Source of the DNA: Candidatus Zixiibacteriota bacterium
Lineage (GTDB): Bacteria; SM23-81
Assembly (NCBI GenBank): GCA_030628225.1
Contig: DAOVRJ010000036.1
Location: 1 to 14,206 of the forward strand
Length of the DNA stretch: 14,206 nt
Reading direction: 5' to 3'
Positions within the stretch are counted from its first letter, which is position 1. Every line of letters begins with the position of its first letter. The position numbers were made by a program, and so were the translations under genes. The notes under the pieces are model-generated. The model was not told the origin of the DNA. It saw only the letters and a program-made list of their open reading frames with translations, and made no database searches. Below are positions 1-14,206 of this stretch, in pieces.

Positions 1-432
1 ATCCCGGGTCTTCAGAATGGTCAATTTCTCAAGGCCCACGGTCTGGAGGGGGTGGTAACCATTCTCGGACGGGTGCCACGCCAGAGGTGCTTGGAAATCC
101 AGGAGGCCTCTCACGTACTGGTCTTAATCCAGTCCGGGACAAAATTGCAGGTGCCAGCCAAACTATACGAGTACATTATGATTGGCAAGCCGATTCTGGC
201 CTTGACCTCTAATGGAGCCACGGCGGATCAGATGAGGTCCGAGGGCCTGGGTCTCGTGGCCGATATTGATAAGCCGGCTCAGATCGAGTCGACCGTCCTG
301 GAGCTTTATCGAAGATTCAAACAGGGACGATTGACGGTCGGGTATAACCTCCAAGCCCGTTCCAAGTTTCGTTTTGATTACTTGACCCGAGAGCTGGCTC
401 ATGTTCTGGAAGAGGTAACCGTCCCTGAATAG
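1..432 (+). CDS. glycosyltransferase, C-terminal fragment (5' end outside window)
   Basis: The frame is open from base 1 to a TAG at 430-432, giving about 143 residues of a larger protein. The visible part looks like the C-terminal nucleotide-sugar-binding half of a GT-B (GT4-like) glycosyltransferase. The stretch VPAKLYEYIMIGKPILAL is the typical donor-binding segment, where the Glu of the 'KLYEY' motif contacts the nucleotide sugar. Before it comes a hydrophobic strand (ASHVLVLIQSG). After it comes a short helix-rich tail, as expected in this fold. It lies 45 bases upstream of the O-ligase gene on the same strand, so it is probably co-transcribed and takes part in building the polysaccharide repeat unit. 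The substrate and exact family cannot be told from the fragment. Confidence 0.8.
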   Translation: MPGLQNGQFLKAHGLEGVVTILGRVPRQRCLEIQEASHVLVLIQSGTKLQVPAKLYEYIMIGKPILALTSNGATADQMRSEGLGLVADIDKPAQIESTVLELYRRFKQGRLTVGYNLQARSKFRFDYLTRELAHVLEEVTVPE

Positions 433-477: not shown

Positions 478-1926
478 GTGAAACCCGGAGGAGAAACGCT
501 CGAGGGAAAAGCAGCGGTGAGTTCTTCTCGGGAACGTTCCGGGATGCGTGAAGATTACCCCCAGGGCAGAGTCCCCGAGATCATCGGTAAGAAACATCTG
601 CTGATGGTTTTCGTCCTGGGAATCTCGGCGCTGACCGGTTTCCTCTGTCTGATCTTTCCTGCTCGATATATCGTTATCCTGGCGGTTGGACTTCTGGGTT
701 TTGGGGTTATCTGTATGCATCCCATTGTGGGACTGGTGACCTTTTATATTCTCACCTATATTCGACCCCAAGAGATTACCTATGGTTTCGAGCGATTTCG
801 GCTCTCGCTGATAGTGGCCCTGGCCAGCTTCCTCGGGTGGATCCTGGGGGAGGTGAGGAGTTCCCGGCGTCAATTTCAGAGATCAAAGCAGAATTACATC
901 GTTCTGGGACTCTGGCTGGCCTTGATCGGCTCCACCATCTTCAGCTTCGACGCCCGGACCAGCTTCGGGCATCTGGTTGAGTGGAGCAAGATCTTTCTCC
1001 TTTACTTGGTGACTGTGAACCTCGTGCGTCAAGAGAAACAGTTTCGCCTCCTGATCTGGGTACTCATGATCCTGACCGCTTTTCTGGCCTTGAGGGCCGA
1101 TTACCGTTATTTTCACCTGGGTTACACAAAGGTGTCAGGATATGGGCTCTCCTGGGATAACAACGACTGGGGTCTGGCTCTGGTGATGGTGTGTCCCTTT
1201 TTCTACTTCCTGGTATTCGAACAGCCCACTGTTTTTCGCAAGATGTTTCTTGCCGGGCTGTTTCTAATATCCACGCTTGCTGTGGTGGCCACGGGCTCCC
1301 GGGGGGCCTTTCTTGGCCTGATAGCGACTGAGGTCTTCCTGCTGATCAAAGGGAAGAGCAAGTTGCTTGGGATCAGCATCGCCTGTCTTATCGTGATTTT
1401 TGTCTTTCTCTTCGCCTCTCCTAGCTATATTCAGGAGATCAGGAGCATTGGCCAGTATCAGGACGACGCCTCGGCCATGGGCCGGGTCGATGCCTGGAAG
1501 ATCGGCTGGCAGATGATGAAAGACCGTCCGCTGGCAGGTGTGGGGTTGGGCCAATTCATCGTACAGCGTCGGAACTACGAGTCGACATATGATCGGCATG
1601 TGGCTCACAGCGCTTACTTTCAGTTGGGGGCGGAGAGTGGTGTGCTGGCCTTAATCCTGTTTCTTCTGTTGCTTTCGTCCATGATCTACGATCTTCATCG
1701 TCTGCGCTGGCAGGTGCGCCGGGGAAAGGCCTTTCCGTGGGTGGCGCATTATTCGTTGATGCTTGAGGCTGGCCTATGGGGCTACATCATCTGTTCCGCT
1801 TTTCTCAGCAGGGAGCGCTTCGACGTGCTCTATCTGTTCGTGGCCCTGGTGGTGGTTTTGTGCCACCGGGTAGGCTTGAAGCCGCAAGAAAGGCAGTCAG
1901 TTGGAGGAGCGACTCTTGTTGGGTGA
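478..1926 (+). CDS. O-antigen ligase/polymerase-like membrane protein, exosortase-A-associated
   Basis: A 482-residue integral membrane protein with about ten or more hydrophobic segments and a long periplasmic loop in its second half. It matches the pattern of the Wzy/WaaL-type O-antigen ligases found beside exosortase A (the TIGR03097-like 'probable O-glycosylation ligase'). Supporting motifs are YIRPQE at residues 94-99, TGSRGAF in the Wzy_C-like region, MGRVDAWKIGW, and AHSAYFQLGAESG with His377, which resembles the conserved loop histidine of WaaL-type ligases. The likely role is polymerisation of lipid-linked oligosaccharide or its transfer onto an acceptor at the periplasmic face of the inner membrane. 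The start is GTG at 478, supported by an upstream GAGGAG; ATG 544 is the alternative. Only 4 bases, or an overlap, separate it from the next gene. Ligase and polymerase cannot be told apart by sequence alone. Confidence 0.85.
   Translation: MKPGGETLEGKAAVSSSRERSGMREDYPQGRVPEIIGKKHLLMVFVLGISALTGFLCLIFPARYIVILAVGLLGFGVICMHPIVGLVTFYILTYIRPQEITYGFERFRLSLIVALASFLGWILGEVRSSRRQFQRSKQNYIVLGLWLALIGSTIFSFDARTSFGHLVEWSKIFLLYLVTVNLVRQEKQFRLLIWVLMILTAFLALRADYRYFHLGYTKVSGYGLSWDNNDWGLALVMVCPFFYFLVFEQPTVFRKMFLAGLFLISTLAVVATGSRGAFLGLIATEVFLLIKGKSKLLGISIACLIVIFVFLFASPSYIQEIRSIGQYQDDASAMGRVDAWKIGWQMMKDRPLAGVGLGQFIVQRRNYESTYDRHVAHSAYFQLGAESGVLALILFLLLLSSMIYDLHRLRWQVRRGKAFPWVAHYSLMLEAGLWGYIICSAFLSRERFDVLYLFVALVVVLCHRVGLKPQERQSVGGATLVG
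1903..1909 (+). promoter_or_regulatory. ribosome binding site inside the end of the O-ligase gene
   Basis: GGAGGAG lies within the last codons of the preceding gene. It stands 6 and 9 bases before in-frame TTG codons at 1916 and 1919, but 21 bases before the GTG at 1931. It therefore argues for a TTG start of the following glycosyltransferase, although the protein pattern fits GTG 1931 best. Confidence 0.4.
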
Positions 1927-1930
1927 CAGA

Positions 1931-3067
1931 GTGAAGATCCTCCATCTCGTAGCCGGTTTAGGGATCGGTGGACTGGAGCGGGTTGTGGTTAACCTGCTTT
2001 CGGCTCTCGACCGGGACAAATACGATCTGGCCGTTTGCTGCTTGGACGACTATATGGCCCTGGCAAACGAAGTTTCCAGAATGGGAACTCAGATCCTGTG
2101 TCTCCATCGCAACGGGCCAGGCACAGACTACGGTCTTTTTCTACAATTGAGCCGACTATTGAGGCGGCATCGTGTGCAAATATTGCATACTCATAATTAC
2201 TCCCCATACTTTTTTGGTGTACCGGCGGCGCTATTGGCCGGGACGCCACACGTGGTGCACACCGAGCACGGACGGGTTTTCCCCGATCGCCGGGCACTGA
2301 TGGCTTTTAATCGTTTGTTCGCCTTCAAGGTGGACCGGGTAGTGGCTGTGTCACAAGCTCTTAAGCAAGATCTAGCTCGGTACGAAAAAGTCCCGGAGCG
2401 AAAACTAAAGGTAATTTCCAATGGTGTGCCATTGCGGTCTGTAACCAGTAAGGAAGAGATGGCAGCCAAACGGCAGGAACTGGGATACGGACCGAACGAG
2501 ATTTTAGTGGGCAACGTGGCTCGGCTAGTTCCGGTCAAGGATCATCAGTGTCTGCTGAGGGCTATGAATTTGGTAACTTCCGTTTTACCCCATGCCAGGC
2601 TGATCATTGTTGGCGATGGCCCCGAGAGATCCAGGTTAAAACGGCTGGCCGTCGACTTGAGTCTGGGTGAACGAGTGCAGTTTCTAGGGGAGCGGAGAGA
2701 TGTCTGGGACCTCATGGGGATCTTCGACCTCTTCGTGCTGTCCTCTCTGAGCGAGGGGGTGTCCATGACTCTTTTGGAGGCCATGGTCGCTGCTAAACCC
2801 GTTGTAGCCACCCATGTAGGTGGTAACATCGAACTGATTAATAACGGCTGCAATGGCCTGCTGGTCCCAACGGATGACCCAGAGGCTCTGACCGCCGCCA
2901 TTTTGAGGCTTTTGCAGGACCGGAGGCTGGCCCAGAGGATGGGTCAGGTAGCCCGACAGGAAGTGGAGAGAAAATACACCCTCAGCCGAATGGCTCGATC
3001 TTACGAACGGGTTTACGATGACTGTTTTGCCGAGGGAGTTGCTCGAAGAGAGGTAGTTTGCCAATAG
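1931..3067 (+). CDS. GT4 glycosyltransferase, PEP-CTERM/EpsH1-associated (Stp2 type)
   Basis: About 378 residues with the GT-B fold of family GT4. The N-terminus (KILHLVAGLGIGGLERVV) with its glycine-rich loop, then ILHTHNY, HTEHGR and VDRVVAVS, follows the pattern of the sugar transferase known from exosortase loci as TIGR03088 (stp2). The C-terminal half carries the EX7E donor-site motif EGVSMTLLE (Glu275 and Glu283 counted from GTG 1931), followed by KPVVATHVGG. It probably adds a sugar to the lipid-linked intermediate at the cytoplasmic face. The start is uncertain. GTG 1931 gives the usual family N-terminus, the strong GGAGGAG at 1903-1909 is better placed for TTG 1916 or 1919, and the longest frame starts at TTG 1901. 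The gene follows the O-ligase stop at once, which suggests translational coupling. The sugar specificity is unknown. Confidence 0.87.
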   Translation: MKILHLVAGLGIGGLERVVVNLLSALDRDKYDLAVCCLDDYMALANEVSRMGTQILCLHRNGPGTDYGLFLQLSRLLRRHRVQILHTHNYSPYFFGVPAALLAGTPHVVHTEHGRVFPDRRALMAFNRLFAFKVDRVVAVSQALKQDLARYEKVPERKLKVISNGVPLRSVTSKEEMAAKRQELGYGPNEILVGNVARLVPVKDHQCLLRAMNLVTSVLPHARLIIVGDGPERSRLKRLAVDLSLGERVQFLGERRDVWDLMGIFDLFVLSSLSEGVSMTLLEAMVAAKPVVATHVGGNIELINNGCNGLLVPTDDPEALTAAILRLLQDRRLAQRMGQVARQEVERKYTLSRMARSYERVYDDCFAEGVARREVVCQ

Positions 3068-3092
3068 TCGATGAGCATCGTGGAGAACTGTG

Positions 3093-4295
3093 ATGAAAGT
3101 ATTAATCTTCACTACTCTTTTTCCCAATAAAGTCCAGAGATGTTTGGGGACATTCAGCCTGGAACGGGCCAAAGAGCTGGCCAGGTTGGCCGAGATACAG
3201 GTGATAGCTCCGGTGCCCTATTTCCCGCCGTTGCGAGTCTTTCGCAGGTGGTATCCCTTTTCACAGGTCCCCTGTTGCGAGGTCTGGTCCGGGATCGTCG
3301 TCCATCATCCGCGCTACGTCGTCTTTCCCAAAGTGGGCATGGCTCTGTATGGTTTGTCTATGTTTTTCAGCGTTTTGTGCCGGGTCAGGGCCCTGCGGAG
3401 AAGGTTCGATTTCGACCTCATCGATGCCCATTTCGTTTACCCGGATGGCTTCGCCGCCGTCCTGCTGGGCAAGATGCTCCATCGTCCGGTGGTGGTCACC
3501 TCCCACGGCACTGATCTGAATCTGTATCCCCGATTCTCGTTGGTACGGAAATTGCTAATTTACACTTTGTCTAGAGCAGATGCGGTCATCGCCGTTTGTA
3601 AAGCCCTGAAGGATCAAGCCCTCAGTTTGGGCGCTAGCGAGGATAAGTCCTCAGTGATACCTAATGGAGTTCAGCTGAGCAAGTTTCAGCCCATTCCTCG
3701 GTTCGAGGCCCGCCAAAAGCTGAGTCTACCCCAGGATCGGCGCGTCGTCCTGTCCGTGGGGTTACTCATTCCGCGCAAAGGATTTCATTACTTGATCGAG
3801 GCAATAGGCCAGCTGGTTCAGGATCAGGCCTGGTCCGACCTGTTGCTGGTCATCGTTGGCGAGGGAAAGTCGCGGCCCGCCCTGGAACGGCTGATCCGAG
3901 AACGGAATCTGGGGTCTCATGTCATGCTGGTCGGGGCCAAGCCTCACGAGGAGATATACCTATGGCAGGGTGCCTCGGACATCTTCTGTCTGGCCAGTTC
4001 CCGGGAGGGTTGGCCCACCGTTTTTTTCGAGACCTTCGCCTGTGGCAAGCCGGTGGTGGCCACTAAAATCTGGGGCGCTCCGGAGGCGATTCCCTCCGAG
4101 GATTACGGAATCCTGGTAGATGGCCAAGAACCGGAACTTCTGGCTGAGGGTATCCGCAAAGCTCTGCAGCGACGTTGGGATGCCCAAAAGCTGACTTGTT
4201 ACGCCGGGGAGAATACCTGGAAGCGCGTAGCTGAGAGGGTCTTCATTCGATTTCAAGAGGTCTTGGGACGGGGAACCGGGAAAGAAGCTGTATGA
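3093..4295 (+). CDS. GT4 glycosyltransferase
   Basis: 400 residues from ATG 3093. GGAG at 3082-3085 is 7 bases upstream of this ATG; a GTG directly before it (3090) is the other possible start. It is a typical GT4 protein. The N-terminal acceptor domain begins MKVLIFTTLFPN and continues with VIAPVPYFPP, FDLIDAHFVYPDG and VVTSHGTDLN. The C-terminal donor domain contains the EX7E motif EGWPTVFFE (Glu305 and Glu313), followed by GKPVVATKIWGAPEAI. The pattern resembles WcaL/EpsD-like glycosyltransferases that recur in PEP-CTERM-linked exopolysaccharide clusters. It lies 25 bases after the preceding GT gene, in the same apparent operon, and probably adds another sugar to the repeat unit. Donor and acceptor cannot be assigned from sequence. 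Confidence 0.87.
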   Translation: MKVLIFTTLFPNKVQRCLGTFSLERAKELARLAEIQVIAPVPYFPPLRVFRRWYPFSQVPCCEVWSGIVVHHPRYVVFPKVGMALYGLSMFFSVLCRVRALRRRFDFDLIDAHFVYPDGFAAVLLGKMLHRPVVVTSHGTDLNLYPRFSLVRKLLIYTLSRADAVIAVCKALKDQALSLGASEDKSSVIPNGVQLSKFQPIPRFEARQKLSLPQDRRVVLSVGLLIPRKGFHYLIEAIGQLVQDQAWSDLLLVIVGEGKSRPALERLIRERNLGSHVMLVGAKPHEEIYLWQGASDIFCLASSREGWPTVFFETFACGKPVVATKIWGAPEAIPSEDYGILVDGQEPELLAEGIRKALQRRWDAQKLTCYAGENTWKRVAERVFIRFQEVLGRGTGKEAV

Positions 4296-4326: not shown

Positions 4327-5223
4327 ATGAGATGTCGGCTCTCCTATGTCTCACAGCCCATGGGCAAAAACTTTCATCCCCAGAAATTAGGGGGGTATTA
4401 CAACGACTTCAGCGAGAAGGCGCTTCAATACCGGACGAATTCACAGGATGTTCTTTTCACAACCAACCCCGTGAATATTGCTCAAGCCTGCCTGGGTTTT
4501 CACGAGCTCTGGCTAACCACCGCTCGGAGAGAGGATCTGGAGCGGAGCATCCAACTGGCCGACTGGTTGGTGGCCAATCAGAAGGATGGTCGCTGGGAGT
4601 TCCGATTTGGCTGGTACTACGGGCTTCGCCCCCCGTGGATATCGGCCATGGCTCAGGGAGAGGGGATTTCTGCTCTGCTGAGACTCCATCTGGCCACGGG
4701 AGATGACCGCTATCTGTCGGCGGCTCGTGCGGCCCTGGATCCTTTTCAGAAGGAAATAGGGCGGGGAGGAGTTGCCATCTCGGTGGGGGAGGAGCAGGTT
4801 TTCTTCGAGGAATACCCTTCCGACCCACCCAGCCATGTGTTGAACGGTTTCGTATTTGCCCTGTGGGGACTCTATGACTATGCTCTTTACCTGAAAGATC
4901 CTGAGGCTGACCGGCTATTTCAGGCCGGTGTCCATACCTTAGCAACCTGGCTGCCCGGGTACGATCTGGGATACTGGTCATCCTACGATCTGTTCCCCTT
5001 TCAGGTGCGGTTTGTGGCTCATCCTTTCTATCATCAGTTGCATATTGCTCAACTGGAAGTTATGTTTCAGTTGACCGGACGGCTTCCCTTTCGGGAAACG
5101 GCCGAGCGCTGGGAAGGCTATCGGAAGAGATGGAGCTGTCGATGGAGGCGTGCGGCGCATGCTGCCCTTTTTAAAGCGTACTCCCGTTGTTCAAAAATGG
5201 GCCGTATCACACAGGTTAATTGA
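4327..5223 (+). CDS. D-glucuronyl C5-epimerase-like protein
   Basis: 298 residues, recognised from the pattern of the glucuronyl C5-epimerase C-terminal domain (C5-epim_C, PF06662), the catalytic alpha-barrel of heparan-sulfate and heparosan glucuronyl C5-epimerases. Family-like stretches in order are NPVNIAQ (47-53), PPWISAMAQGEG (102-113), EEYPSDPPSHVLNG (161-174), a tyrosine-rich YDLGYWSSYDL (212-222), and FYHQLHIAQ (234-242). In characterised members, conserved tyrosines act in the proton abstraction and return at C5 of glucuronate, giving L-iduronate. Here Tyr163, 212, 216 and 220 are candidates. No clear signal peptide is seen, and the first 45 residues are unlike the core, so cytoplasmic or membrane-associated action before export is possible. 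The start is ATG 4327 with GAGG at 4312-4315; the gap to the preceding gene is 31 bases. It is unusual among exosortase operon genes. Activity on another uronate cannot be excluded. Confidence 0.82.
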   Translation: MRCRLSYVSQPMGKNFHPQKLGGYYNDFSEKALQYRTNSQDVLFTTNPVNIAQACLGFHELWLTTARREDLERSIQLADWLVANQKDGRWEFRFGWYYGLRPPWISAMAQGEGISALLRLHLATGDDRYLSAARAALDPFQKEIGRGGVAISVGEEQVFFEEYPSDPPSHVLNGFVFALWGLYDYALYLKDPEADRLFQAGVHTLATWLPGYDLGYWSSYDLFPFQVRFVAHPFYHQLHIAQLEVMFQLTGRLPFRETAERWEGYRKRWSCRWRRAAHAALFKAYSRCSKMGRITQVN

Positions 5224-5252
5224 AAGCGGGAGATTTCCCCTGAGAACCTGAG

Positions 5253-6278
5253 ATGAAAGTATTGAGGTTAAACGAGGAACAGGAAAACCGTTGGGACGAT
5301 TACGTCAAGAATACGCCCCAGGCCACTTTTTTCCATCTGGTGGGCTGGAAACATACTGTTGAGCGGACCTTTGGCCACCGAGCGTACTATCTGTATATCA
5401 TGGATGGTGGATCCATTCGTGGTATTCTCCCACTCTTCTTGGTCCGCACACCATTGATAGGGCGTGCCCTGATCTCCATCCCCTACGCTGTTTACGGGGG
5501 GGCTTGCGCTGATGACGAAAAGACAACGCACATCCTGCTGAAGGAGGCCAAAGATCTCGCCGAAGATCTGGGGGTCAGTCACCTCGAGTTACGGCATCTG
5601 TACGCCAACGATTTTTCTCTGCCCACCAAAGACCTTTATACAACTTTTATCAAGGAGTTGCCGCGAGACCCACAGGATTGTCTCAAGAGCTTGCCCCGTA
5701 AGGCCCGGGCTGCCGCCCGGAGCGGTTTGGCCCACGGGTTGGTAGCGGAGATGGGCTTGAGCCAGATGAGCACCTTTTATAAATTACATGCCATCAATGT
5801 TAGGAGGCTGGGTTCCCCCGTTATGCCCTTTAAATGGTTTGAGAATTTGTTGGCCGAATTTGCCCCTCACGTGAACGTTTTGTCGGTGAGGTATAAAAAA
5901 AAGATCGTTGCTGCCGTGTTGACCTTTTTCTTCCGAGATACAGTGATGCCCTATCATTCCGGGTCACTTAAAGAATATGCGCAGTATCAGATCAACAATG
6001 TGATGTACCTTCGATTGATGGAATACGGGAGCGAGAGGGGATATCGGTATTTCGATTTCGGGCGCAGCCGCCACAATACCGGCTCTTATCACTTTAAAAA
6101 ACATCAGGGGTTTAAGCCTCGACCACTTCACTATCAGTACTACTTGCGCCATGGGAAGGAGCTTCCAGATCTGAACCCGTCAAACCCGACCTTCAGCATT
6201 CCTCAACGAATCTGGCCACGCCTGCCCTTGTGGGCCACTCAGTTGTTGGGCCCTAGGGTGATCAAATACATTCCCTGA
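5253..6278 (+). CDS. FemAB-like GNAT-fold protein, PEP-CTERM/XrtA-associated
   Basis: 341 residues matching the FemAB-related family found beside exosortase A (TIGR03019-like). The N-terminal part has NTPQATFFHLVGWKHTVERTFGH and IRGILPLFLVRTPLIGR, typical of the first GNAT-like half. The second half has the conserved run YRYFDFGRSRHNTGSYHF at about 265-282, then KKHQGFKP. FemAB/FemX proteins transfer amino acids from aminoacyl-tRNA onto peptidoglycan precursors. In exosortase loci the substrate is unknown, and aminoacylation or acylation of a sugar or lipid intermediate is the usual guess. There is no signal peptide, so it is presumably cytoplasmic. The start is ATG 5253, 29 bases after the epimerase gene, with only a weak ribosome binding site visible. 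Confidence 0.88.
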   Translation: MKVLRLNEEQENRWDDYVKNTPQATFFHLVGWKHTVERTFGHRAYYLYIMDGGSIRGILPLFLVRTPLIGRALISIPYAVYGGACADDEKTTHILLKEAKDLAEDLGVSHLELRHLYANDFSLPTKDLYTTFIKELPRDPQDCLKSLPRKARAAARSGLAHGLVAEMGLSQMSTFYKLHAINVRRLGSPVMPFKWFENLLAEFAPHVNVLSVRYKKKIVAAVLTFFFRDTVMPYHSGSLKEYAQYQINNVMYLRLMEYGSERGYRYFDFGRSRHNTGSYHFKKHQGFKPRPLHYQYYLRHGKELPDLNPSNPTFSIPQRIWPRLPLWATQLLGPRVIKYIP

Positions 6279-6291
6279 AGGTTAGACTCGG

Positions 6292-7143
6292 ATGTTAATC
6301 ATAACACGCTCACAGAAAATATTTATGTTGACCATCGGTCTACTGCTGGGAGTCCTTTACTTTCCGGTATTTGTCGAGCTGGTGGGAGATTGGGTGCGTG
6401 ATGAAAATTACTCCCACGGCTTTTTGGTGCCCCTGGTTACGGCCTTTCTGGTTTGGCGCAAGCGGAATCGTTTACAGGCAATGGCCTGTGACCCCAACAA
6501 CTGGGGTTTGGTGACGCTCATCGGCGGGCTAGGTCTGCTTATGGTGGCCACGATAGGAGCTGAGTATTTTACCACTCGTTTCTCTCTGTTGGTGGTCATA
6601 GCAGGTCTGCTGCTCTATCTTTGGGGAATAGAAGCCTTTCGAGAGCTGACCTTTCCTCTGGTCTATTTAGTTTTTATGATTCCACTGCCGTATGTTGTGT
6701 TCTACAGCATTTCCTTTCCACTGAAGCTCTTTGCCAGTCAATGCACAGAACCAGTGATAAGGTTTCTGGGAATTCCGGTCATCAGGGAGGGGAATATTCT
6801 CCACCTGTCCAACCTCAGCCTTGAGGTCGTCGACGCCTGCAGTGGGTTGCGTTCCTTGATATCTCTGCTGGCCCTGGGAGCCTTGTTCGCCTATCTGACC
6901 CAAAAAGCCGCCTGGAAGAGGTGGGTTCTCTTTCTGTATACCGTGCCAGTCGCCATCGGAGCTAATATCTTCCGCTTGACGGCAACTGCGGTTATGGCCC
7001 AGGTATACGGTGAAAAGGTGGCCAGAGGGTTTCTTCATCAGTTCTCAGGGATGTTGGTCTTCATCTTCGCCGTTGTGGTCTTGGTCATAACTGGATGGGT
7101 ATTGCGTTGGAAAAGCACAAGTCCAGATATTGGATCGCTATAG
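6292..7143 (+). CDS. xrtA: exosortase (XrtA/EpsH type)
   Basis: 283 residues, an inner-membrane protein with about eight hydrophobic segments, the usual size for the exosortase core domain. Exosortases are transpeptidase-like enzymes thought to cleave the PEP-CTERM sorting signal of exported proteins and pass them on to a surface attachment. The proposed catalytic residues are present: Cys183 in VVDACSGLRSL, Arg228 in ANIFRLTATAV and His249 in LHQFSGMLVF. The early loop ENYSHGFLVPLV is also typical. Type A is inferred from the neighbours (EpsI, FemAB-like, Stp1/Stp2-like and O-ligase genes). The start is ATG 6292 with GAAGG at 6277-6281 overlapping the preceding stop. The 3' end overlaps epsI by 49 bases in another frame. 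Confidence 0.93.
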   Translation: MLIITRSQKIFMLTIGLLLGVLYFPVFVELVGDWVRDENYSHGFLVPLVTAFLVWRKRNRLQAMACDPNNWGLVTLIGGLGLLMVATIGAEYFTTRFSLLVVIAGLLLYLWGIEAFRELTFPLVYLVFMIPLPYVVFYSISFPLKLFASQCTEPVIRFLGIPVIREGNILHLSNLSLEVVDACSGLRSLISLLALGALFAYLTQKAAWKRWVLFLYTVPVAIGANIFRLTATAVMAQVYGEKVARGFLHQFSGMLVFIFAVVVLVITGWVLRWKSTSPDIGSL

Positions 7144-7751
7144 CTCTGCTGTTGGTGGCGACCATATATATACATTTTCTACCCCACGGAGAGGGTTCTT
7201 TACGAGGGGAGGTGAATTTGACTTCCTTCCCCAGTCAAATTGCCGACTGGACCGGGGACAACCTTCCTTTCAGTCAGGAGGTTCGTGACGAACTTGGGGT
7301 AGATGACTATCTTCTCAGATCCTATGCGGATCACAGGGGTCGATCTGTTGTTCTGTATGTGGGCTACTATCGTAGCCAAAGGAAAGGCAAGGGGATCCAC
7401 TCGCCAAAGCACTGCTATCCCGGGGGTGGATGGTCTCTAGTAGAGAAGGGTCTGGAGCGAATCGATGTCGGTGGGGAGCGGGAACTGGTGGTCACAAGAC
7501 TGGTATTTCGGAAAAACCAGGTTATCAACATCGTTCTATACTGGTTTCAATCCCGGGGAAGGATCATCAACAACGAGTACTTGCAGAGGATCTACATGGT
7601 CTTGGATGCCATTTTGCACAATCGAACCGACGGGGCTCTTGTACGAGTGTCTGCCATAGCATATAACAACGATGTGATTCAGACTCTGGAGATAGAACGG
7701 CAGTTCGTGAATGAGGCCTATTCGCACTTGGTCAAGCATTTGTCGCAGTAA
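7095..7751 (+). CDS. epsI: EpsI family protein, exosortase partner
   Basis: 218 residues with an N-terminal membrane anchor (YWIAIALLLVATIYIHFL, about 12-29) and a periplasmic domain of the EpsI family (TIGR02914-like). Diagnostic features are FPSQIADWTG, VGYYRSQRKGK, the conserved GIHSPKHCYPGGGW at 100-113 with Cys107, and IVLYWFQSRGRIINNEY. EpsI is found next to or fused to exosortase A and is needed for methanolan synthesis in Methylobacillus; its biochemical role is unknown. Here it is a separate gene whose ATG at 7095 lies 49 bases inside xrtA, so translation is probably coupled. No strong ribosome binding site precedes the ATG. TTG 7107 is a less likely start. Confidence 0.9.
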   Translation: MGIALEKHKSRYWIAIALLLVATIYIHFLPHGEGSLRGEVNLTSFPSQIADWTGDNLPFSQEVRDELGVDDYLLRSYADHRGRSVVLYVGYYRSQRKGKGIHSPKHCYPGGGWSLVEKGLERIDVGGERELVVTRLVFRKNQVINIVLYWFQSRGRIINNEYLQRIYMVLDAILHNRTDGALVRVSAIAYNNDVIQTLEIERQFVNEAYSHLVKHLSQ

Positions 7752-7756
7752 CGGGG

Positions 7757-9019
7757 GTGACCTTGAATATCCTGCTTCTGGCCCATCGATTACCGTATCC
7801 TCCAGACAAGGGGGATAAAATACGTTCTTTTAACTTGATTAAGCATCTTGCTCAACGCCATTCTGTTCGGCTGGCCTGCCTGGCGTGGTCATCACAGGAG
7901 ATGGAGATGATCGCTCATTTGAGGGATTATTGCCACTCCATCGATGTCATCCGGCTTCGCCCTCAATGGTCAAAGGTCAAAAGTCTCCTACACCTGTTTT
8001 CATCTAAACCGATGACATTGCCCTACTTTTACTCGAGGCGATTGCAAGACCTCGTCCGGCGTCGACTCCAGGAGGAGAAAATTAACGTGATCGTCGTCTT
8101 CTCCTCATGCATGGCCCAGTTTGTTCCTCACGATGTTGCCGTTTACAAGATCATAGATTTTGCCGATGTGGATTCTGACAAGTGGTTTCAATATGCGAAG
8201 CACGTGAAATTCCCCTTCTCGATGATTTATCAGTTAGAGGGCCAGAGGCTAAGGAAGTATGAGATTTCTCTGGCCTCCCGATATGATTGCTGTACGGTGG
8301 TATCTCAGGTGGAGGAGCATCTCTTTCGCTCTTACTCGGATCGATTCATTCTCTCTACGGTTCCCAACGGGGTTGACTTAGAGTATTTCCAACCCAGAGA
8401 AAGAGAACCCGATCAGCCGCTGATGATCTGTATGGGGGTCAGGGACTATTATGCTAATGTAGATGGCGTTCTTTATTTCCATCGTCGGATCCTACCTCAC
8501 ATCCGCAGCAGATTTCCTCAGGTGAAGTTCACAGTTTTGGGTGGCAACCCGACGCGGGCGATTCGCAGGCTTGGTCGGAGCGAGAATGTGACCATCACTG
8601 GATATGTGAAGGATGTTCGGCCATTCCTAAACCGGGCCACCGTTTGTGTGGTCCCCCTGCGAATTGCCCGAGGAGTGCAGAACAAGATCTTGGAGGCCAT
8701 GGCCTCGGGTCTGCCCGTGGTGGCCACCAGTCGTGCCGCCGAGGGCATTGATGCCCGACCGGGGAGAGATCTCGTGGTGGCCGATGATCCCGTGGAGTTT
8801 GCAGCTAGAACGGTAAAGCTGCTATTTGATCGCCAACTCCAGCAGAAGCTGTCTCGAAATGCGCGCAAATTAGTGGAAAGCAAGTATCACTGGAACAATT
8901 GCTTGCAAAAACTAGATCTGATTCTAGAGGCCATACCTGAAAGATCACCTGAAACTACAGCAAACTTATCTCTAGCCTCTTCCTCAAGCTCGGGGAACGG
9001 GTCAGTTTTAGAGCGATGA
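7757..9019 (+). CDS. GT4 glycosyltransferase, PEP-CTERM/EpsH1-associated (Stp1 type)
   Basis: Up to 420 residues. The N-terminus NILLLAHRLPYPPDKGDKIRSF is the hallmark of the exosortase-associated sugar transferase known as TIGR03087 (stp1). It is followed by a GT-B core with VYKIIDFADVDSDKW, TVVSQVEEHLF, TVPNGVDLEYF, VKDVRPFLNRA and GVQNKILEAMASGLPVVAT. The first Glu of the EX7E motif is replaced by Arg (RGVQNKILE), as I expect for this subfamily. It probably adds a sugar to the polysaccharide repeat unit in the cytoplasm. GTG 7757 is the longest start. TTG 7763 has a better spaced GGGGG at 7753-7757 and may be the true one. The last 25 residues are serine-rich and look disordered. It is the last gene of the packed operon. 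Confidence 0.9.
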   Translation: MTLNILLLAHRLPYPPDKGDKIRSFNLIKHLAQRHSVRLACLAWSSQEMEMIAHLRDYCHSIDVIRLRPQWSKVKSLLHLFSSKPMTLPYFYSRRLQDLVRRRLQEEKINVIVVFSSCMAQFVPHDVAVYKIIDFADVDSDKWFQYAKHVKFPFSMIYQLEGQRLRKYEISLASRYDCCTVVSQVEEHLFRSYSDRFILSTVPNGVDLEYFQPREREPDQPLMICMGVRDYYANVDGVLYFHRRILPHIRSRFPQVKFTVLGGNPTRAIRRLGRSENVTITGYVKDVRPFLNRATVCVVPLRIARGVQNKILEAMASGLPVVATSRAAEGIDARPGRDLVVADDPVEFAARTVKLLFDRQLQQKLSRNARKLVESKYHWNNCLQKLDLILEAIPERSPETTANLSLASSSSSGNGSVLER

Positions 9020-9304
9020 TAAAGTCGCTGAGGCAGAGGCTGATCTGTGGCTGAAGCCGCACATTTATGGGAAAGGCTACCTTAATTGAGTTTTCGTCAA
9101 GATGTTCGCCCGCGGAACGCAGGAGAGAAATGCAGAGCTGCTTTTCGGAAAGCCCATGAACGATCTGTTCACATATAGCGGGGCGATCCGCATCTGTACA
9201 GAGACTATCTCCTGCACCTGGGAAAGAACTTAAAGATACCGGAGGGAAACTTTCCTGATCCCGGAGATCTTTCAGCATAAAAAAGAACAGAATAGGTGGG
9301 GAAG
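9020..9304. other. intergenic region before the sigma-54 activator gene
   Basis: About 285 bases with no convincing gene. It holds a 10-base palindrome TCTGTACAGA (9193-9202) and a near-perfect direct repeat GATACCGGAG / GATCCCGGAG (9235-9244 and 9257-9266) spaced 22 bases, about two helical turns. The stop of the preceding gene sits in a weak AGCGA/TCGCT stem without a T-run, so no classical terminator is seen. I find no -24/-12 promoter here and no clear -35/-10 pair. A minus-strand frame across it (8955-9311) resembles nothing I know and overlaps both neighbours. Confidence 0.5.
9235..9266. repeat. 22-base-spaced direct repeat, possible operator
   Basis: GATACCGGAG (9235-9244) and GATCCCGGAG (9257-9266) match at 9 of 10 bases with a 22-base period. 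They end 38 bases before the activator's ATG. Tandem sites two helical turns apart are common for dimeric regulators, but no regulator can be named from the sequence, and a short repeat like this can arise by chance. Confidence 0.3.
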
Positions 9305-10714
9305 ATGACAAAAATTTTATTGGTGGGTGTCGATGACAAAACAGCCCTTTCGCTGAGGGAGGCTGTGGCTCAACGAAAGGAGTATGTCATCGACCGGTGT
9401 AAGGCTGAAGAAGCACAAATACTGATAGAGCGGAGCAAACCGGGGATTATTTTTCTAAATATCGCCCGTCCTGAAGTTTCGCGACTGCATCTGCTCCAGA
9501 CATTCAAAAGAGATGCCCGGGATGTTCCGGTCATCGTCATCGCCGAGAGAGTTTCCACTTCATTGGCCATCAAGGCGATGAAAGAAGGGGCCTTTGACTA
9601 CGTCATAAAGCCCTTAGACAAGACTCAGCTTCGGGCATTATTGGAGAAATTGGCCAGGACTCGCCAGAAGGCTCCCAGTAAACCCGCTCTGGAGCTGGAA
9701 GAGGACATGGAAGGAGAGACGGTTTTCATCGGTGAGCATCCCGAGATGCTGGAGATCTACAAGCTTATTGGCCGTGTAGCTCCCACGGACGTGCCGGTTT
9801 TGATCCAGGGAGAAACCGGAACGGGCAAAGAGCTTGTGGCTCAGGAAATACATCGTCACAGTCTTCGTGGCCACAAGAGGTTGCTGGCCGTGAACTGCGC
9901 CGCTATTCCGGAAACGCTGCTGGAGAGTGAGCTGTTTGGTCACGAGGCAGGGGCTTTTACAGGAGCTATGGGCAGGCGGAAGGGGAAGTTCGAGCAGGCT
10001 GATGGCGGCACAATATTTTTGGACGAGGTGACCGATATGAGCCCGGCCACCCAGAGCAAAGTTTTGCGAGTCCTGGAGCAGCAAGAGTTCGAGAGGCTCG
10101 GCGGAGCAGAGACCATTAAGGTGGACATCAGAATCATCACGGCCACCAATCGCAGTTTGGTTAAGTGTATGCAAGAAGGTGGATTTCGGGTCGATCTGTT
10201 TTATCGACTTCGCGGTGCTTTTATTTGCCTGCCTCCCTTGCGAAGCAGGGGGGAAGATGTTTGCCTCATCGCCGAATACTTCCTGCGGCAGTTTTCCGAA
10301 AAGACCAAGAAGAATATCAAGAGCCTCCATCCCAGAACAGTTAAGAAACTAAAAGAATATTCCTGGAAGGGCAATATCAGGGAGCTGAGAAACGTCATTC
10401 AGACTGCTGTCATCTTCTGCCACGGAGAGGTTCTGCTCCCGGAGCACATTTTTCTGGAGGAGGAAATAGTCGATTCCGGTGAAATCCAGGATGATTGTCA
10501 GCAGATGTTTACTAGGATGATCGAGCCATTATTTGATAAATTGAGGGTCTCTGAGGAGGGCCATCTGTATCAGCAATTGACCTCAGCTTTGGAAAGGGCG
10601 TTGATTCAGATCACCATGGAGAAAGTGGGAAAAAATCAAGTCAAGGCGGCACAGCTTTTGGGAGTTAGTCGTAACACCTTGCGAGATCGATTGAAAAAGT
10701 TCGGGCTGAGCTAG
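9305..10714 (+). CDS. sigma-54-dependent activator (NtrC family) with degenerate receiver domain
   Basis: 469 residues in three domains. Residues 1-120 form a receiver-like fold in which the phospho-acceptor Asp is Asn52 (FLNIARPE), the acidic pair is replaced (ILLVGVDDK), and the usual Thr is Ala, while Lys102 (DYVIKP) remains. Residues about 140-375 form the AAA+ sigma-54 interaction domain with Walker A GETGTGKE (169-176), an intact GAFTGA loop (216-221), Walker B GGTIFLDE (234-241) and the arginine region FRVDLFYRLRG. The C-terminus is a Fis-type helix-turn-helix (from about 444, NQVKAAQLLGVSRNTLRDRL). ATG 9305 is preferred over GTG 9296 because AGGTGGGG lies just before it. It should open complexes at sigma-54 promoters such as the one at 11137-11151. 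It occupies the position of PrsR-type regulators in exosortase loci, but no sensor kinase is present here. Confidence 0.93.
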   Translation: MTKILLVGVDDKTALSLREAVAQRKEYVIDRCKAEEAQILIERSKPGIIFLNIARPEVSRLHLLQTFKRDARDVPVIVIAERVSTSLAIKAMKEGAFDYVIKPLDKTQLRALLEKLARTRQKAPSKPALELEEDMEGETVFIGEHPEMLEIYKLIGRVAPTDVPVLIQGETGTGKELVAQEIHRHSLRGHKRLLAVNCAAIPETLLESELFGHEAGAFTGAMGRRKGKFEQADGGTIFLDEVTDMSPATQSKVLRVLEQQEFERLGGAETIKVDIRIITATNRSLVKCMQEGGFRVDLFYRLRGAFICLPPLRSRGEDVCLIAEYFLRQFSEKTKKNIKSLHPRTVKKLKEYSWKGNIRELRNVIQTAVIFCHGEVLLPEHIFLEEEIVDSGEIQDDCQQMFTRMIEPLFDKLRVSEEGHLYQQLTSALERALIQITMEKVGKNQVKAAQLLGVSRNTLRDRLKKFGLS

Positions 10715-10932
10715 ACCAAGATCTTTTGGCTGGAGAATGGCGGTGTCCGATGCCGTCTTCGGCCTTACCGTCGATACCATGTATGTGAATTCCCCAAGTC
10801 ATATCGGTGATCCAGATGGCAATCACCTATTGTGTAATCCGGGGTTAGAGAGGAAGAGTGGTTTCGGGGAACTCCTGTTCGGTTGACGAATTCATTAAAC
10901 CCCTCATCAACATGGAGGGAAGTGCTCTTGGA

Positions 10933-10962
10933 GGTCCACGACATCTCCTGCGGATGTGGACC
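10933..10962. repeat. inverted repeat / hairpin GGTCCAC...GTGGACC
   Basis: Perfect 7-base arms GGTCCAC (10933-10939) and GTGGACC (10956-10962), extended inward by ATC/GAT after a 3-base bulge, leaving a 7-base loop. No T-run follows, so it is not a standard intrinsic terminator. It could be an operator, a distant enhancer site about 200 bases upstream of the sigma-54 start, or a transcript-end structure of the activator mRNA. Confidence 0.5.
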
Positions 10963-11031
10963 GAGTAGAGCTGCTGATTGTTCAAAGCTTTTAGATCTAT
11001 AGAATAATTTTCTGGGAATGTGTGGGGGAGA

Positions 11032-11054
11032 CACTGTTCAAATCCTATACAGTG
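11032..11054. promoter_or_regulatory. candidate upstream activator site (CACTGT-N11-ACAGTG)
   Basis: Perfect 6-base inverted repeat CACTGT (11032-11037) and ACAGTG (11049-11054) with an 11-base spacer. Its centre lies about 120 bases before the predicted start of the sigma-54 promoter, the usual distance for an NtrC-family enhancer. The CTGT/ACAG half-site also occurs in the palindrome at 9193-9202. Assignment to the neighbouring activator is inference. Confidence 0.45.
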
Positions 11055-11136
11055 CTCTGGGCAGGATCTGTGAGAGCCCCTTGCCCCGGGAGCACGATCC
11101 CCATTTGTTACTTGAACATAGCTCATTCTACCCATT

Positions 11137-11151
11137 TGGCATAGAAGTTGC
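11137..11151 (+). promoter_or_regulatory. sigma-54 (-24/-12) promoter
   Basis: TGGCATAGAAGTTGC fits the sigma-54 consensus TGGCACG-N4-TTGC with both GG and GC elements at the exact spacing; only two of the less conserved central bases differ. With C11151 as -12, transcription would start near 11163, leaving a leader of about 318 bases before the lyase ATG. It points to the plus-strand lyase gene and sits directly downstream of a sigma-54 activator gene, which strengthens the call. Confidence 0.75.
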
Positions 11152-11162
11152 GGGTTCTACCG

Positions 11163-11480
11163 GTGATGGGTTATCATTACTTGCTTGGGATCAAGAACAG
11201 ATTTGGAAATACGAAGGTCCTGAAATTTATTATTACTGCCACCGAGGACGGGACTCCTTCATCCGAGAAAAGCATGAGCTGATTCTTTAAGGGATTTCGG
11301 AGTTGGCCCTGAGGTACGATCTCGCCAGCGGAGCTTATGAGAAGGAAGTACAACCTTGGAGGTTCGCGTTTCATCTTATTACGTGGGAATTTACAGTTAT
11401 TTCATCGGCTCTGCGGATGCTGTGCTGGAAAAGCGGGGAGATCGTAATCGCAACCGACGGCAAAGAGAGGTGACCTAACT
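11163..11480 (+). other. long untranslated leader of the lyase gene
   Basis: About 318 bases between the predicted sigma-54 start and the lyase ATG. I see no riboswitch that I recognise and no strong hairpin. A plus-strand frame (ATG 11018, TAA at 11288-11290, then open to TGA 11471-11473) crosses it but overlaps the promoter and resembles nothing known. The leader ends with a good ribosome binding site. Confidence 0.4.
11465..11473 (+). promoter_or_regulatory. ribosome binding site of the lyase gene
   Basis: GAGAGGTGA is a near-ideal complement to the 16S 3' end, 7 bases before ATG 11481. Together with an in-frame TAA at 11445-11447 it fixes the start. Confidence 0.75.
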
Positions 11481-14206
11481 ATGGAAGTCAAGGATACTGC
11501 TCGAAGCAACTTAAGAATCCCTCTTGTTCTCAGAATAACTCTATTACTCAGTTTAGCCTTTCTCATGGTGGTTGGATCATTGCTGAGGCCTGCAGAGGCC
11601 AACCAGCCCCCCATTTTGCGGACGAGCAAGGTATTTCAGCAGCAGGATTCGGTCGAGGAGGGCCAGCCATATCAAGGGTGCCAGGACGCCTGGTATTGGG
11701 ACGAAAACAACAGGGACTGGAGCTCCAACGAGCTAGGCCAATCTGTCAGGATCGTCATCCGGTTCTCAGATTTGCCCATCCCCTCCGGGGCAGAGGTGGA
11801 AGAAGCCATCTTGCAGATGTACATGTACGAACTGGGTGCGGGCAGTGGCAGTAACATCTATGTCTATGGGGTTAAGAGAGATTGGGTCGTGAATGAGGTC
11901 ACCGCCGTGGAGTACCGTTCCGGAAATAACTGGGAGATGGCGGGAGGAGACGGGCCATCTGATCGAACCCAGGTTGCTGCCGACACGGTTCAGCTTAGCT
12001 CCGGGGCAGGCTGGAGATCCTGGGATGCGAAATCCATTGCCCAGAGTTGGATTTCAGGGGAGTTCGACAACAACGGCTTCATGCTTGTCGGCCAGGGAGG
12101 AGATTCCGGCTGGAACAGCGATAGGACCAAGTTTCACGCCGAATCATTCGGCATCAACGAGGAGCAGAAATTGTTTCGCCCCAAGCTCCTTCTCAGTTGG
12201 TCCCCCGCGGAAATACCTGATCAGGCTCTGATCCAGAACCAGAACTACCAAAATCTGTTCGACCTGGACGACTACTTCTATGACCCCGACGGCGATTCAT
12301 TGTCCTATAGCTGCATTGGGAACACTCATGTTACGGTGATCATCGACGAGGAGAACCGCGTGGACATGGTCCCAGAACAGGATTGGATCGGCGCGGAGCA
12401 GGTTCAGTTTATCGCCGACGACGGGCATGGCGGAACGCTTTCAAGCAATTTCGTACAGATCAAGGTTCAAGGTGCCTCCGTCTCCATCCCCAATCAGCGG
12501 TGGAGCCAGGGATATTCTTACATCAATGCCCTCGACCTGGATGACTATTTTTTGGAGGAGGGATTGACCTTCACCGCTTCCACGGAGGACAACCCCAACA
12601 TCGATGTCGTTATTAATCCTGATCATACCATCGATTTCAACCAGCTGTCTTCCTTTTATGGTACCGAATCGGTGGTCTTTACGGGCACAGGAAGCCAGGG
12701 GGATTACCTGAGTAATTCGGTGCTATTGACGGTTGATAAACCCGAGTATGAGACGGTTCTCACCGATCATCCCAAGATATATATCTGTCCGGAAAACTTC
12801 AACACTCTCAAGGACAGGATAGAAGAGCCAGATGGTCCTCTGGCTTCTCTGTTCAACAGCTTCAAGTCCGAGGCTGACGCCAACGAGTTTCGCGACAAGA
12901 CATACGGTTGGTATGGGTTTGTGAGCGACGGGGCACTGGAGGAGATCGTCATGCTGGGTTATCTGTACCAGATGACCGGGGACGTGGCCTATGCCAATTC
13001 CATAGTCAGTGCCATGGAGTGGCTGCCCAACTACGATGGCGCCGCCAGCAGTCCCACCAATAAAGCCTCCACTCTCGAAGGGCTTGCTTTGGGATTTGAC
13101 ATGGCTTATGACCGGATCGTGGAGCTGGGTCGTCGGGATGAGTTCATCGAGGATATCGTCACCTATGCCGATCGGGAGAAACAATCACTCATCGACGACC
13201 TGTATACCGATTTCCACAATTACTTCACCCACAAATCCACCGCCGTTTTGTTCGCCGGCTTGGCCCTCTATGGAGAACACACCAAAGCCTCAGAATATCT
13301 TGATTTTGCCCTGGAATGCTTTCGCGGAGATCTTACAAACACGGGAACAACAGCCTCCCTGAAATTTCTCGATGGCGATGGGAACTGGGAAGGCAGCACC
13401 TATGCAAGGCAGTCTTTGTGGCATATGAACCGCTTTGTCAAAGGCTGGCAGACGGGCAACGACAACGCGGTTAATTGGTACAATGACATGATTCCCGAAT
13501 TTGAGAACTCTGGATACGCTCAGATCTATTATATGCGCCCGGACAAAATTATGGTCAAGGCAGGAGATTGTACCTACCCCTGGGCACAGGATAAAGACGC
13601 CTTCTCTCTCTGGGCTTTTCAGGGAGAGTATCAGAATCAGCACTTCACCTGGATTTGCGAGAACACCTGGACCGACTACCTTCACGGTATTTTGTTAAAC
13701 AGTGGTCTGGACAAGGATAACACATGGTACAAACGAAAAGTCTGGGCATTTCTGTGGTGGGACCCCTCGGTGCCTGCTGAAAACATCAACAATCTTCCAC
13801 TGAGCCGGGAGTACAAAACCGGCGAGGTGATCATGCGCAGCGATTGGGCCGATGACGCCACGTATATCATGTTCAAGAGACCTACTTATCACTTTGGCGG
13901 CCATCTCCACTTGGACCAGAACTCCTTTACGATATACAAAAACGGTCCTTTGGCCACTCACTCCGGATATTTTAGCAGTGGCGGCGATCACAGGTGGAAT
14001 TACTATAGAAGATCCATCGCTCATAATTCCGTTTTGGTGAAGGACCCCAGCTACTCGATTGTCCATGGCAATTCCAACAATCAGTATATGGATTTTTACA
14101 ACGATGGAGGCTACCGCTTTGTATGGGCCAGACATGATCCTCCGCACGCTGCGGAGCGAGGCTGGTCCAACGAGCCACGCTGGTTGCCAGACGGAAGCGT
14201 GGTTGC
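11481..14206 (+). CDS. secreted heparinase II/III-type polysaccharide lyase with DNRLRE and Ig-like domains (3' end outside window)
   Basis: One uninterrupted frame from ATG 11481 to the window edge, 908 codons without a stop. Residues 1-40 are a signal peptide: Arg-containing N-region, core ITLLLSLAFLMVVGSLL, cleavage likely after AEA. About 47-240 resemble a DNRLRE domain (SVRIVIRFSDLPIPSGAEVEEA is the typical strand pair, ending RPKLLLSW). About 244-330 and 333-418 are two cadherin/Ig-like repeats (DLDDYFYDPDGDSLSY, NALDLDDYF). From about 424 comes an alpha-helical toroid, then the heparinase II/III-like beta domain with HLHLDQNSF (His808, His810, Asp812) and RRSIAHNSVLV (His848). Enzymes with this fold cut uronate-containing polysaccharides by beta-elimination. 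It is exported, probably periplasmic or extracellular, and is driven by the sigma-54 promoter at 11137-11151. The natural substrate is unknown; the locus's own polymer is the likely one. The C-terminus, which might hold a sorting signal, is not visible. Confidence 0.88.
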   Translation, partial: MEVKDTARSNLRIPLVLRITLLLSLAFLMVVGSLLRPAEANQPPILRTSKVFQQQDSVEEGQPYQGCQDAWYWDENNRDWSSNELGQSVRIVIRFSDLPIPSGAEVEEAILQMYMYELGAGSGSNIYVYGVKRDWVVNEVTAVEYRSGNNWEMAGGDGPSDRTQVAADTVQLSSGAGWRSWDAKSIAQSWISGEFDNNGFMLVGQGGDSGWNSDRTKFHAESFGINEEQKLFRPKLLLSWSPAEIPDQALIQNQNYQNLFDLDDYFYDPDGDSLSYSCIGNTHVTVIIDEENRVDMVPEQDWIGAEQVQFIADDGHGGTLSSNFVQIKVQGASVSIPNQRWSQGYSYINALDLDDYFLEEGLTFTASTEDNPNIDVVINPDHTIDFNQLSSFYGTESVVFTGTGSQGDYLSNSVLLTVDKPEYETVLTDHPKIYICPENFNTLKDRIEEPDGPLASLFNSFKSEADANEFRDKTYGWYGFVSDGALEEIVMLGYLYQMTGDVAYANSIVSAMEWLPNYDGAASSPTNKASTLEGLALGFDMAYDRIVELGRRDEFIEDIVTYADREKQSLIDDLYTDFHNYFTHKSTAVLFAGLALYGEHTKASEYLDFALECFRGDLTNTGTTASLKFLDGDGNWEGSTYARQSLWHMNRFVKGWQTGNDNAVNWYNDMIPEFENSGYAQIYYMRPDKIMVKAGDCTYPWAQDKDAFSLWAFQGEYQNQHFTWICENTWTDYLHGILLNSGLDKDNTWYKRKVWAFLWWDPSVPAENINNLPLSREYKTGEVIMRSDWADDATYIMFKRPTYHFGGHLHLDQNSFTIYKNGPLATHSGYFSSGGDHRWNYYRRSIAHNSVLVKDPSYSIVHGNSNNQYMDFYNDGGYRFVWARHDPPHAAERGWSNEPRWLPDGSVV

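What the first reader, a model, noticed from the sequence alone, without database searches (positions are those of the whole stretch)
4327..14206. Glucuronyl C5-epimerase and secreted heparinase-like lyase in one exosortase locus
The sequence shows a C5-epimerase-type protein inside an exosortase-A operon and, less than 7 kb away, a secreted heparinase II/III-type lyase. Epimerases of this family turn glucuronate into iduronate in heparosan-like chains, and lyases of this fold cut uronate polymers. Together they suggest a glycosaminoglycan-like, iduronate-containing exopolysaccharide with its own trimming enzyme, comparable in logic to AlgG/AlgL of alginate. I know of no described exosortase system of this kind.
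Basis: partly seen in the sequence, partly recalled or inferred. Interest (0 to 1): 0.62.

Follow-up and report, generated by a model that had tools for sequence, protein, structure and literature searches.

The report
Uronate epimerase inside an exosortase operon
An uncultured bacterium carries a relative of the animal enzyme that makes iduronic acid for heparin inside an operon that builds a surface polymer and sorts proteins; the enzyme is almost certainly real, but the "heparin-like polymer with its own trimming lyase" idea is not supported, and its relatives point to a rarer, nitrogen-bearing uronic acid.

Summary
Both proteins are present. 4327-5223 is a GlcE-type D-glucuronyl C5-epimerase catalytic domain (PF06662 E 1e-49; confident model, Z 31.5 to human GlcE; all five GlcE catalytic residues kept). 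It sits inside a tightly spaced XrtA/PEP-CTERM operon, next to femAB and the exosortase. 11481-14204 is a secreted, contig-truncated HepII-fold protein with the catalytic residues kept, but far below the heparin-lyase cut-off. It is a separate gene, 766 bp beyond a regulator. The pairing is not supported: the sister-family genome has such secreted lyases without epimerase or exosortase; heparinase II/III genes lie near epimerases only in another, KSB1-type clade (5 of 80 loci), where none is near an exosortase; and heparinases near XrtA loci are ordinary. Epimerase within XrtA looks rare (0 of 36 other genomes screened; 0 of 80 epimerase loci). In the epimerase's own clade the neighbours are wbpB/wbpD/wbpE/wecB-type genes for 2,3-diacetamido-uronates, and the same genome holds a wbpA-B-D-I-E cluster on another contig. 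Best reading: a cytoplasmic C5-epimerase acting on a uronate, probably a di-N-acetylated one, in the XrtA glycan. A glycosaminoglycan-like polymer is neither shown nor favoured.

The parts
1..432 (+). C-terminal fragment of a family 4 glycosyltransferase (cut by contig start)
   Evidence: PF13692 E 8e-5, below cut-off
478..1926 (+). O-antigen ligase / polymerase, exosortase-A associated (PEP_O_lig_1)
   Evidence: TIGR03097 207 bits vs 188 cut-off; Wzy_C
1901..3067 (+). glycosyltransferase, stp2-like
   Evidence: TIGR03088 E 3.5e-87, below cut-off; overlaps preceding gene by 26 bp
3090..4295 (+). family 4 glycosyltransferase, TuaC-like at family level only
   Evidence: NF047684 185 bits vs 550 cut-off
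4327..5223 (+). GlcE-type D-glucuronyl (uronyl) C5-epimerase, catalytic domain only, no signal peptide seen; catalytic E162, Y163, N173, Y220, Y235
   Evidence: PF06662 E 1e-49; PDB GlcE E 1e-56 by profile; model pLDDT 92, Z 31.5 to 6i01; residues; start context
5253..6278 (+). FemAB-family XrtA/PEP-CTERM protein (the family to which VimA was matched)
   Evidence: TIGR03019 377.6 bits vs 260.35; VimA-TIGR03019 link PMC7468200
6292..7143 (+). exosortase A (XrtA)
   Evidence: PF09721 E 7.9e-75; TIGR03109 above cut-off
7095..7751 (+). EpsI / DUF3485 exosortase-associated protein
   Evidence: TIGR02914 151.7 bits vs 42.8
7757..9019 (+). XrtA-system glycosyltransferase stp1
   Evidence: TIGR03087 454 bits vs 316.65
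9296..10714 (+). sigma-54-dependent response regulator (NtrC/PrsR-like); no PrsK kinase in the window
   Evidence: Sigma54_activat E 6e-68; TIGR02915 347 bits vs 502 cut-off, not met
11137..11152 (+). candidate sigma-54 (-24/-12) site TGGCATAGAAGTTGCG, upstream of the lyase gene; not significant by count
   Evidence: 7 matches vs 6.2 expected at 2 mismatches
11481..14204 (+). secreted heparinase II/III-fold protein (signal peptide, DNRLRE, Big_9, HepII-like), truncated by contig end; not shown to belong to the operon. H579, Y641, H808 match HepII H202, Y257, H406
   Evidence: HepII residue numbers from memory, consistent

Best explanation
4327-5223 encodes an active uronyl C5-epimerase of the GlcE type (E/Y/N/Y/Y active site; proton abstracted at C5 of a chain-internal hexuronate and returned on the other face). 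It works in the cytoplasm as part of an XrtA operon, so it probably edits a uronate in a lipid-linked repeat unit or oligosaccharide before export. It precedes ligation by the PEP_O_lig_1/Wzy protein and the use of the glycan by the femAB/XrtA protein-sorting branch. The uronate is more likely a 2,3-diacetamido-2,3-dideoxyuronic acid made by the Wbp pathway (D-manno to L-gulo, or D-gluco to L-ido) than plain glucuronic acid. The secreted HepII-fold protein downstream is a separately transcribed neighbour, with no demonstrated tie to the epimerase's product. Shown here: family, fold, catalytic residues, operon spacing, PEP-CTERM substrates in the genome, wbp linkage in the clade. Inferred: activity, cytoplasmic site, substrate, order of steps, separate transcription of the lyase gene.
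For: Family and fold: PF06662 E 1e-49. AlphaFold model pLDDT 92 aligns to human GlcE 6i01 at Z 31.5 over 266 residues; the next fold is at Z 15.5. GlcE catalytic residues E499, Y500, N510, Y560, Y578 (PMC13308652) map to E162, Y163, N173, Y220, Y235. Operon: eight genes 478-9019 with gaps of -49 to 31 bp. Working sorting system: five proteins in the same genome end in PEP-CTERM signals. Wbp link: the window falls with L012, L038, L051 (99/87) and L013 (94/85). L012 has wbpB 44 bp downstream followed by wbpD and wbpE; L013 has wecB, wbpB, wbpD, wbpE; L038 has wbpB just upstream; outside this clade L027 and L044 have the same genes directly adjacent. Three of 3 clade members with long flanks carry wbpB versus 3 of 33 others (Fisher p 0.003, post hoc). 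Contig C298 of the same genome holds SLBB, Wzc, WbpA, WbpB, WbpD, WecB, WbpE. No true UDP-glucose dehydrogenase is near any of the 80 epimerase loci by tblastn. No signal peptide.
Against: wbp genes are not on the window's contig, and C298 cannot be joined to it; the genome has three wbpB-like genes and five Wzz proteins, and C298 has a GC of 57% against 52%. wbpB is common: 26 of 39 genomes. The genome also has a TuaD-like UDP-glucose dehydrogenase, so plain GlcA remains possible. The window's epimerase is shorter in an N-terminal stretch and lacks two aromatic residues common in its relatives (T46, A54), so activity or specificity may differ. No enzyme of this family is known to me to act on diacetamido-uronates.
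Confidence: 0.45

Rival explanations
1. GAG-like reading: the operon makes a heparosan-like GlcA/IdoA exopolysaccharide and the secreted HepII-type lyase trims it.
For: The epimerase is GlcE-type; the one characterised bacterial member acts on desulfated heparin/heparan sulfate in vitro (PMC4432689, PMC13308652). The lyase keeps HepII catalytic residues and aligns with HepII by profile at E 3e-53. The genome has a UDP-glucose dehydrogenase on C149.
Against: The HepB equivalog cut-off is not met (87 vs 600 bits). Sister-family genome G001 has secreted heparinase-like proteins but no exosortase and no epimerase. Epimerase loci with a nearby heparinase form a different clade and lack exosortases. 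Closest epimerases sit with wbp genes. The lyase is 766 bp beyond a regulator gene.
Confidence: 0.12
2. The epimerase acts on plain GlcA in an ordinary heteropolysaccharide or protein-linked glycan (not a GAG), and the lyase is unrelated.
For: UDP-glucose dehydrogenase present in the genome; archaeal Agl32 shows that C5-epimerisation of GlcA in short protein-linked glycans occurs, although with a different active site (PMC13308652); wbp genes are not on the window's contig.
Against: Clade-level linkage to wbp genes and none to a UDP-glucose dehydrogenase.
Confidence: 0.3
3. The epimerase homologue is not an active epimerase (degenerate or repurposed binding protein).
For: Short N-terminal region, T46 and A54 where relatives have aromatic residues; GlcE's beta domains absent.
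Against: All five catalytic residues kept, confident fold, intact reading frame in a tight operon.
Confidence: 0.1

Closest known systems
D-glucuronyl C5-epimerase GlcE (human 6HZZ/6I01, zebrafish 4PW2)
   Same: Same catalytic-domain fold (Z 31.5) and the same five catalytic residues
   Different: No N-terminal beta domains, no signal or membrane anchor; bacterial operon context; substrate not known
Bermanella marisrubri RED65_08024 (only characterised bacterial GlcE-type epimerase)
   Same: Bacterial GlcE-type protein; active on desulfated heparin/heparan sulfate in vitro (PMC4432689, PMC13308652)
   Different: Sequence and gene neighbourhood were not available here; no comparison made
XrtA/PEP-CTERM exopolysaccharide locus (Haft et al. 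2006, PMC1569441)
   Same: femAB, exosortase A, EpsI, stp1, PEP_O_lig_1, sigma-54 regulator, PEP-CTERM proteins in the genome
   Different: Contains a C5-epimerase; none of 36 other genomes screened has PF06662 at all
Wbp/Vim linking-sugar pathway of type IX secretion (PMC7468200)
   Same: VimA matches the femAB family present here; authors proposed a related amino-acid-modified uronate for exosortases; this genome has wbpA-B-D-I-E-type genes
   Different: No C5-epimerase of this kind described there; wbp genes not on this contig
Heparinase II (PL21; 3E7J/2FUQ)
   Same: Profile alignment E 3e-53; H202, Y257, H406 equivalents present
   Different: HepB equivalog cut-off missed by far (87 vs 600 bits); extra DNRLRE and Ig domains; truncated

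Membership tests
GlcE-type C5-epimerase (PF06662) | Profile score above curated cut-off | tested here: met
   169 bits vs 23.3
GlcE-type C5-epimerase (PF06662) | Catalytic E499, Y500, N510, Y560, Y578 (human numbering, PMC13308652) | tested here: met
   E162, Y163, N173, Y220, Y235
GlcE-type C5-epimerase (PF06662) | (alpha/alpha) catalytic-domain fold of GlcE | tested here: met
   Z 31.5, rmsd 2.9, 266 residues to 6i01
GlcE-type C5-epimerase (PF06662) | C5-epimerase activity on a uronate polymer | not testable with these tools
   needs enzyme assay
XrtA/PEP-CTERM system | Exosortase A above equivalog cut-off | tested here: met
   220.6 vs 208 bits
XrtA/PEP-CTERM system | FemAB, PEP_O_lig_1, stp1, EpsI in the locus | tested here: met
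   all above cut-off
XrtA/PEP-CTERM system | PEP-CTERM sorting signals in the genome | tested here: met
   five proteins ending VPEPATLLLLGSGLLGMGAFGAVRRRKK and alike
XrtA/PEP-CTERM system | PrsR regulator above equivalog cut-off | tested here: not met
   347 vs 502 bits; NtrC-family regulator only
Heparinase II/III superfamily (PF07940) | Profile score above curated cut-off | tested here: met
   32.3 vs 24 bits, partial because truncated
Heparin/heparan sulfate lyase HepB (PL21, NF045571) | Equivalog cut-off | tested here: not met
   87 vs 600 bits; truncation contributes
Heparin/heparan sulfate lyase HepB (PL21, NF045571) | Catalytic H202, Y257, H406 | tested here: met
   H579, Y641, H808 by alignment; residue roles from memory
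GAG-like iduronate EPS system | UDP-glucose dehydrogenase in or next to the locus | tested here: inconclusive
   none in the window; TuaD-like gene on contig C149 beside an ArsB-like transporter
GAG-like iduronate EPS system | Conserved pairing of epimerase and lyase | tested here: not met
Wbp diacetamido-uronate locus | wbpA/B/D/E next to the epimerase | tested here: inconclusive
   adjacent in L012, L013, L038, L027, L044; in this genome on another contig

The most novel reading that the evidence does not exclude
The epimerase tailors the sugar by which XrtA-processed proteins are attached: a di-N-acyl uronate (Wbp product, amino-acylated by the FemAB/VimA-like protein encoded 29 bp downstream) is inverted at C5 to an L-sugar before the exosortase uses it. 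GlcE-type epimerases would then have an unrecognised class of substrates, 2,3-diacetamido-uronates, and the unknown exosortase acceptor would become directly testable.
Probability: 0.12. Interest if true: 0.75.

Novelty: new variant of a known kind. Interest (0 to 1): 0.42.

Why it matters
Only one bacterial GlcE-type epimerase has been characterised, and what exosortase A attaches proteins to is unknown. A genuine GlcE-type active site placed between the glycosyltransferases and femAB/xrtA, with relatives next to diacetamido-uronate genes, gives a concrete, assayable guess about both: which L-uronic acid such bacteria make, and whether it belongs to the sorting glycan.

Tried and rejected
(1) Epimerase-lyase pairing as a conserved module: rejected for the window's type. 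(2) Exosortase linkage of the epimerase as a recurrent arrangement: no exosortase within the fetched flanks (up to 10 kb a side, 30 loci shorter than 15 kb) of 80 epimerase loci by tblastn or a small home-made profile, and PF06662 absent from the 36 other genomes screened. (3) First genome-contig scan with the single protein found nothing; the alignment scan found 190 relatives, of which 80 were kept. (4) Structure model of the lyase failed (pLDDT 35, five-row alignment), so no fold search was made. (5) Sigma-54 promoter before the lyase: one plausible site, but no excess over chance; no terminators above chance between the genes. (6) Contig-end overlaps between the window and C298, C149 or C280: none. 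(7) Literature: no held paper has both 'C5-epimerase' and 'exosortase', or 'exosortase' and 'heparinase'; the two Raedts papers are not held. (9) The organism's phylum could not be named.
Full report
WHAT IS THERE. The window is one whole contig (C173) of a 2.34 Mb draft genome, 92% complete, from a phylum with only four genomes held. Eight genes, 478-9019, run on the + strand with gaps of -49 to 31 bp: Wzy/PEP_O_lig_1, two glycosyltransferases, the C5-epimerase, FemAB, exosortase A, EpsI and stp1. A truncated glycosyltransferase precedes them. After 276 bp comes a sigma-54 response regulator (9296-10714), and after another 766 bp the HepII-type protein, which runs off the contig. Five proteins elsewhere in the genome end in textbook PEP-CTERM signals, so the sorting system has substrates.

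EPIMERASE. The protein scores 169 bits against PF06662 (cut-off 23.3) and matches solved GlcE chains. A model from 35 aligned sequences has mean pLDDT 92 and aligns with human GlcE at Z 31.5, 2.9 A over 266 residues; other (alpha/alpha) barrels follow at 15.5. The GlcE catalytic residues E499, Y500, N510, Y560 and Y578 (listed in PMC13308652) correspond to E162, Y163, N173, Y220 and Y235; N173, Y220 and Y235 are invariant among the 35 sequences. The protein lacks GlcE's N-terminal beta domains and shows no signal peptide, which suggests a cytoplasmic enzyme working before export. That is unlike AlgG, which I recall as periplasmic.

LYASE. The secreted protein has DNRLRE and Ig domains and a HepII-type catalytic region. 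A profile of it with four relatives matches heparinase II over most of its length at E 3e-53, and H579, Y641 and H808 fall on HepII H202, Y257 and H406 (catalytic roles from memory). It is probably an active uronate lyase, but it misses the heparin-lyase equivalog cut-off by far, and its substrate is open. HepII-like folds also include the epimerase DSepi1 (from memory), so lyase activity itself is inference.

IS THE PAIR A UNIT? Four observations speak against it. The sister-family genome G001 has large secreted heparinase-like proteins but neither exosortase nor epimerase. Of 36 other genomes screened, chosen mostly for strong FemAB hits, 18 have PF07940 and none has PF06662; in three of them (G117, G258, G387) a standard heparinase II/III lies 15-19 kb from femAB, and in a fourth (G273) a HepII-like gene abuts exosortase, EpsI and a regulator pair. 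So heparinases near exosortases are ordinary. Among 80 epimerase loci, five have a heparinase II/III gene about 4-6 kb upstream, without an exosortase, and these five fall in a KSB1-type clade away from the window's. Finally, the lyase gene is not in the tightly spaced operon.

WHAT DOES THE EPIMERASE ACT ON? The tree puts the window with L012 (Bacterium HR37, 45% identity), L038 and L051 (99/87), and L013 just outside (94/85). L012 has the epimerase 44 bp before wbpB, followed by wbpD and a wbpE-type aminotransferase, with a wbpA-type dehydrogenase at the start of the fetched stretch. L013 has wecB, wbpB, wbpD and wbpE downstream; L038 has wbpB immediately upstream. L027 and L044, outside this clade, have wbpB-wbpE or a full wbpA-B/D-wecB-wbpE set directly adjacent. 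L051, on a short contig, shows none. These assignments are at family level; the wbpB-like proteins match a UDP-GlcNAc 3-dehydrogenase model below its cut-off. None of the 80 loci shows a UDP-glucose dehydrogenase other than cross-hits on wbpA. In the window's own genome, contig C298 carries PorV, SLBB, Wzc, a nucleotidyltransferase, then wbpA, wbpB, wbpD, wecB and the start of wbpE. That is the gene set for UDP-2,3-diacetamido-2,3-dideoxy-D-mannuronate (five-enzyme pathway as in PMC10622841 and PMC7468200). In relative G002 the chain-length and kinase genes precede the glycosyltransferase, Wzy, femAB and xrtA genes, the order that C298 followed by C173 would give. The link stays circumstantial: the contigs cannot be joined, the genome has three wbpB-like genes, wbpB is common (26 of 39 genomes), and the clade-wise test (3 of 3 against 3 of 33, p 0.003) was made after seeing the data.

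SORTING LINK. Veith et al. (PMC7468200) matched VimA, which completes the linking sugar of type IX cargo (a Wbp-derived di-N-acyl uronate), to the XrtA femAB family, and speculated that exosortases use a similar sugar. Here femAB lies 29 bp after the epimerase and 13 bp before xrtA. That makes C5-editing of an XrtA linking sugar a testable, though speculative, idea.

VERDICT. The epimerase is a confident new bacterial member of the GlcE family in an uncommon setting. The glycosaminoglycan-with-trimming-lyase reading is not supported by the comparative evidence, while a diacetamido-uronate substrate fits better but is unproven.

Noticed in passing
G000 contig C298 = L123:1-10417: PorV-family protein, SLBB and Wzc-type export genes followed by wbpA-wbpB-wbpD-wecB-wbpE-type genes; may be the missing upstream half of the window's locus, or may serve type IX secretion.
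   Followed up: partly
G000 contig C280 = L102:216-4160 (-) and G001:C60 = L103:1315-5256 (-): 1314-aa secreted heparinase II/III-like protein whose C-terminal half ends ...NDGFIRFRF like an outer-membrane barrel; full-length counterpart in the sister-family genome.
   Followed up: partly
L107 (G273:C106) 408-8720: HepII-like secreted protein directly beside exosortase, EpsI, a PrsK-like kinase and a PrsR-like regulator in an unrelated GC-rich genome.
   Followed up: partly
L039, L043, L048, L025, L026: Standard heparinase II/III genes about 4-6 kb upstream of GlcE-type epimerases on the same strand, without exosortase: a better place to look for an epimerase-lyase pair.
   Followed up: partly
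L044:1315-10861: Complete wbpA, wbpB-wbpD fusion, wecB, wbpE set immediately upstream of a C5-epimerase gene.
   Followed up: partly
window 11137-11152: Sigma-54-like site TGGCATAGAAGTTGCG in the 766 bp before the lyase gene.
   Followed up: partly
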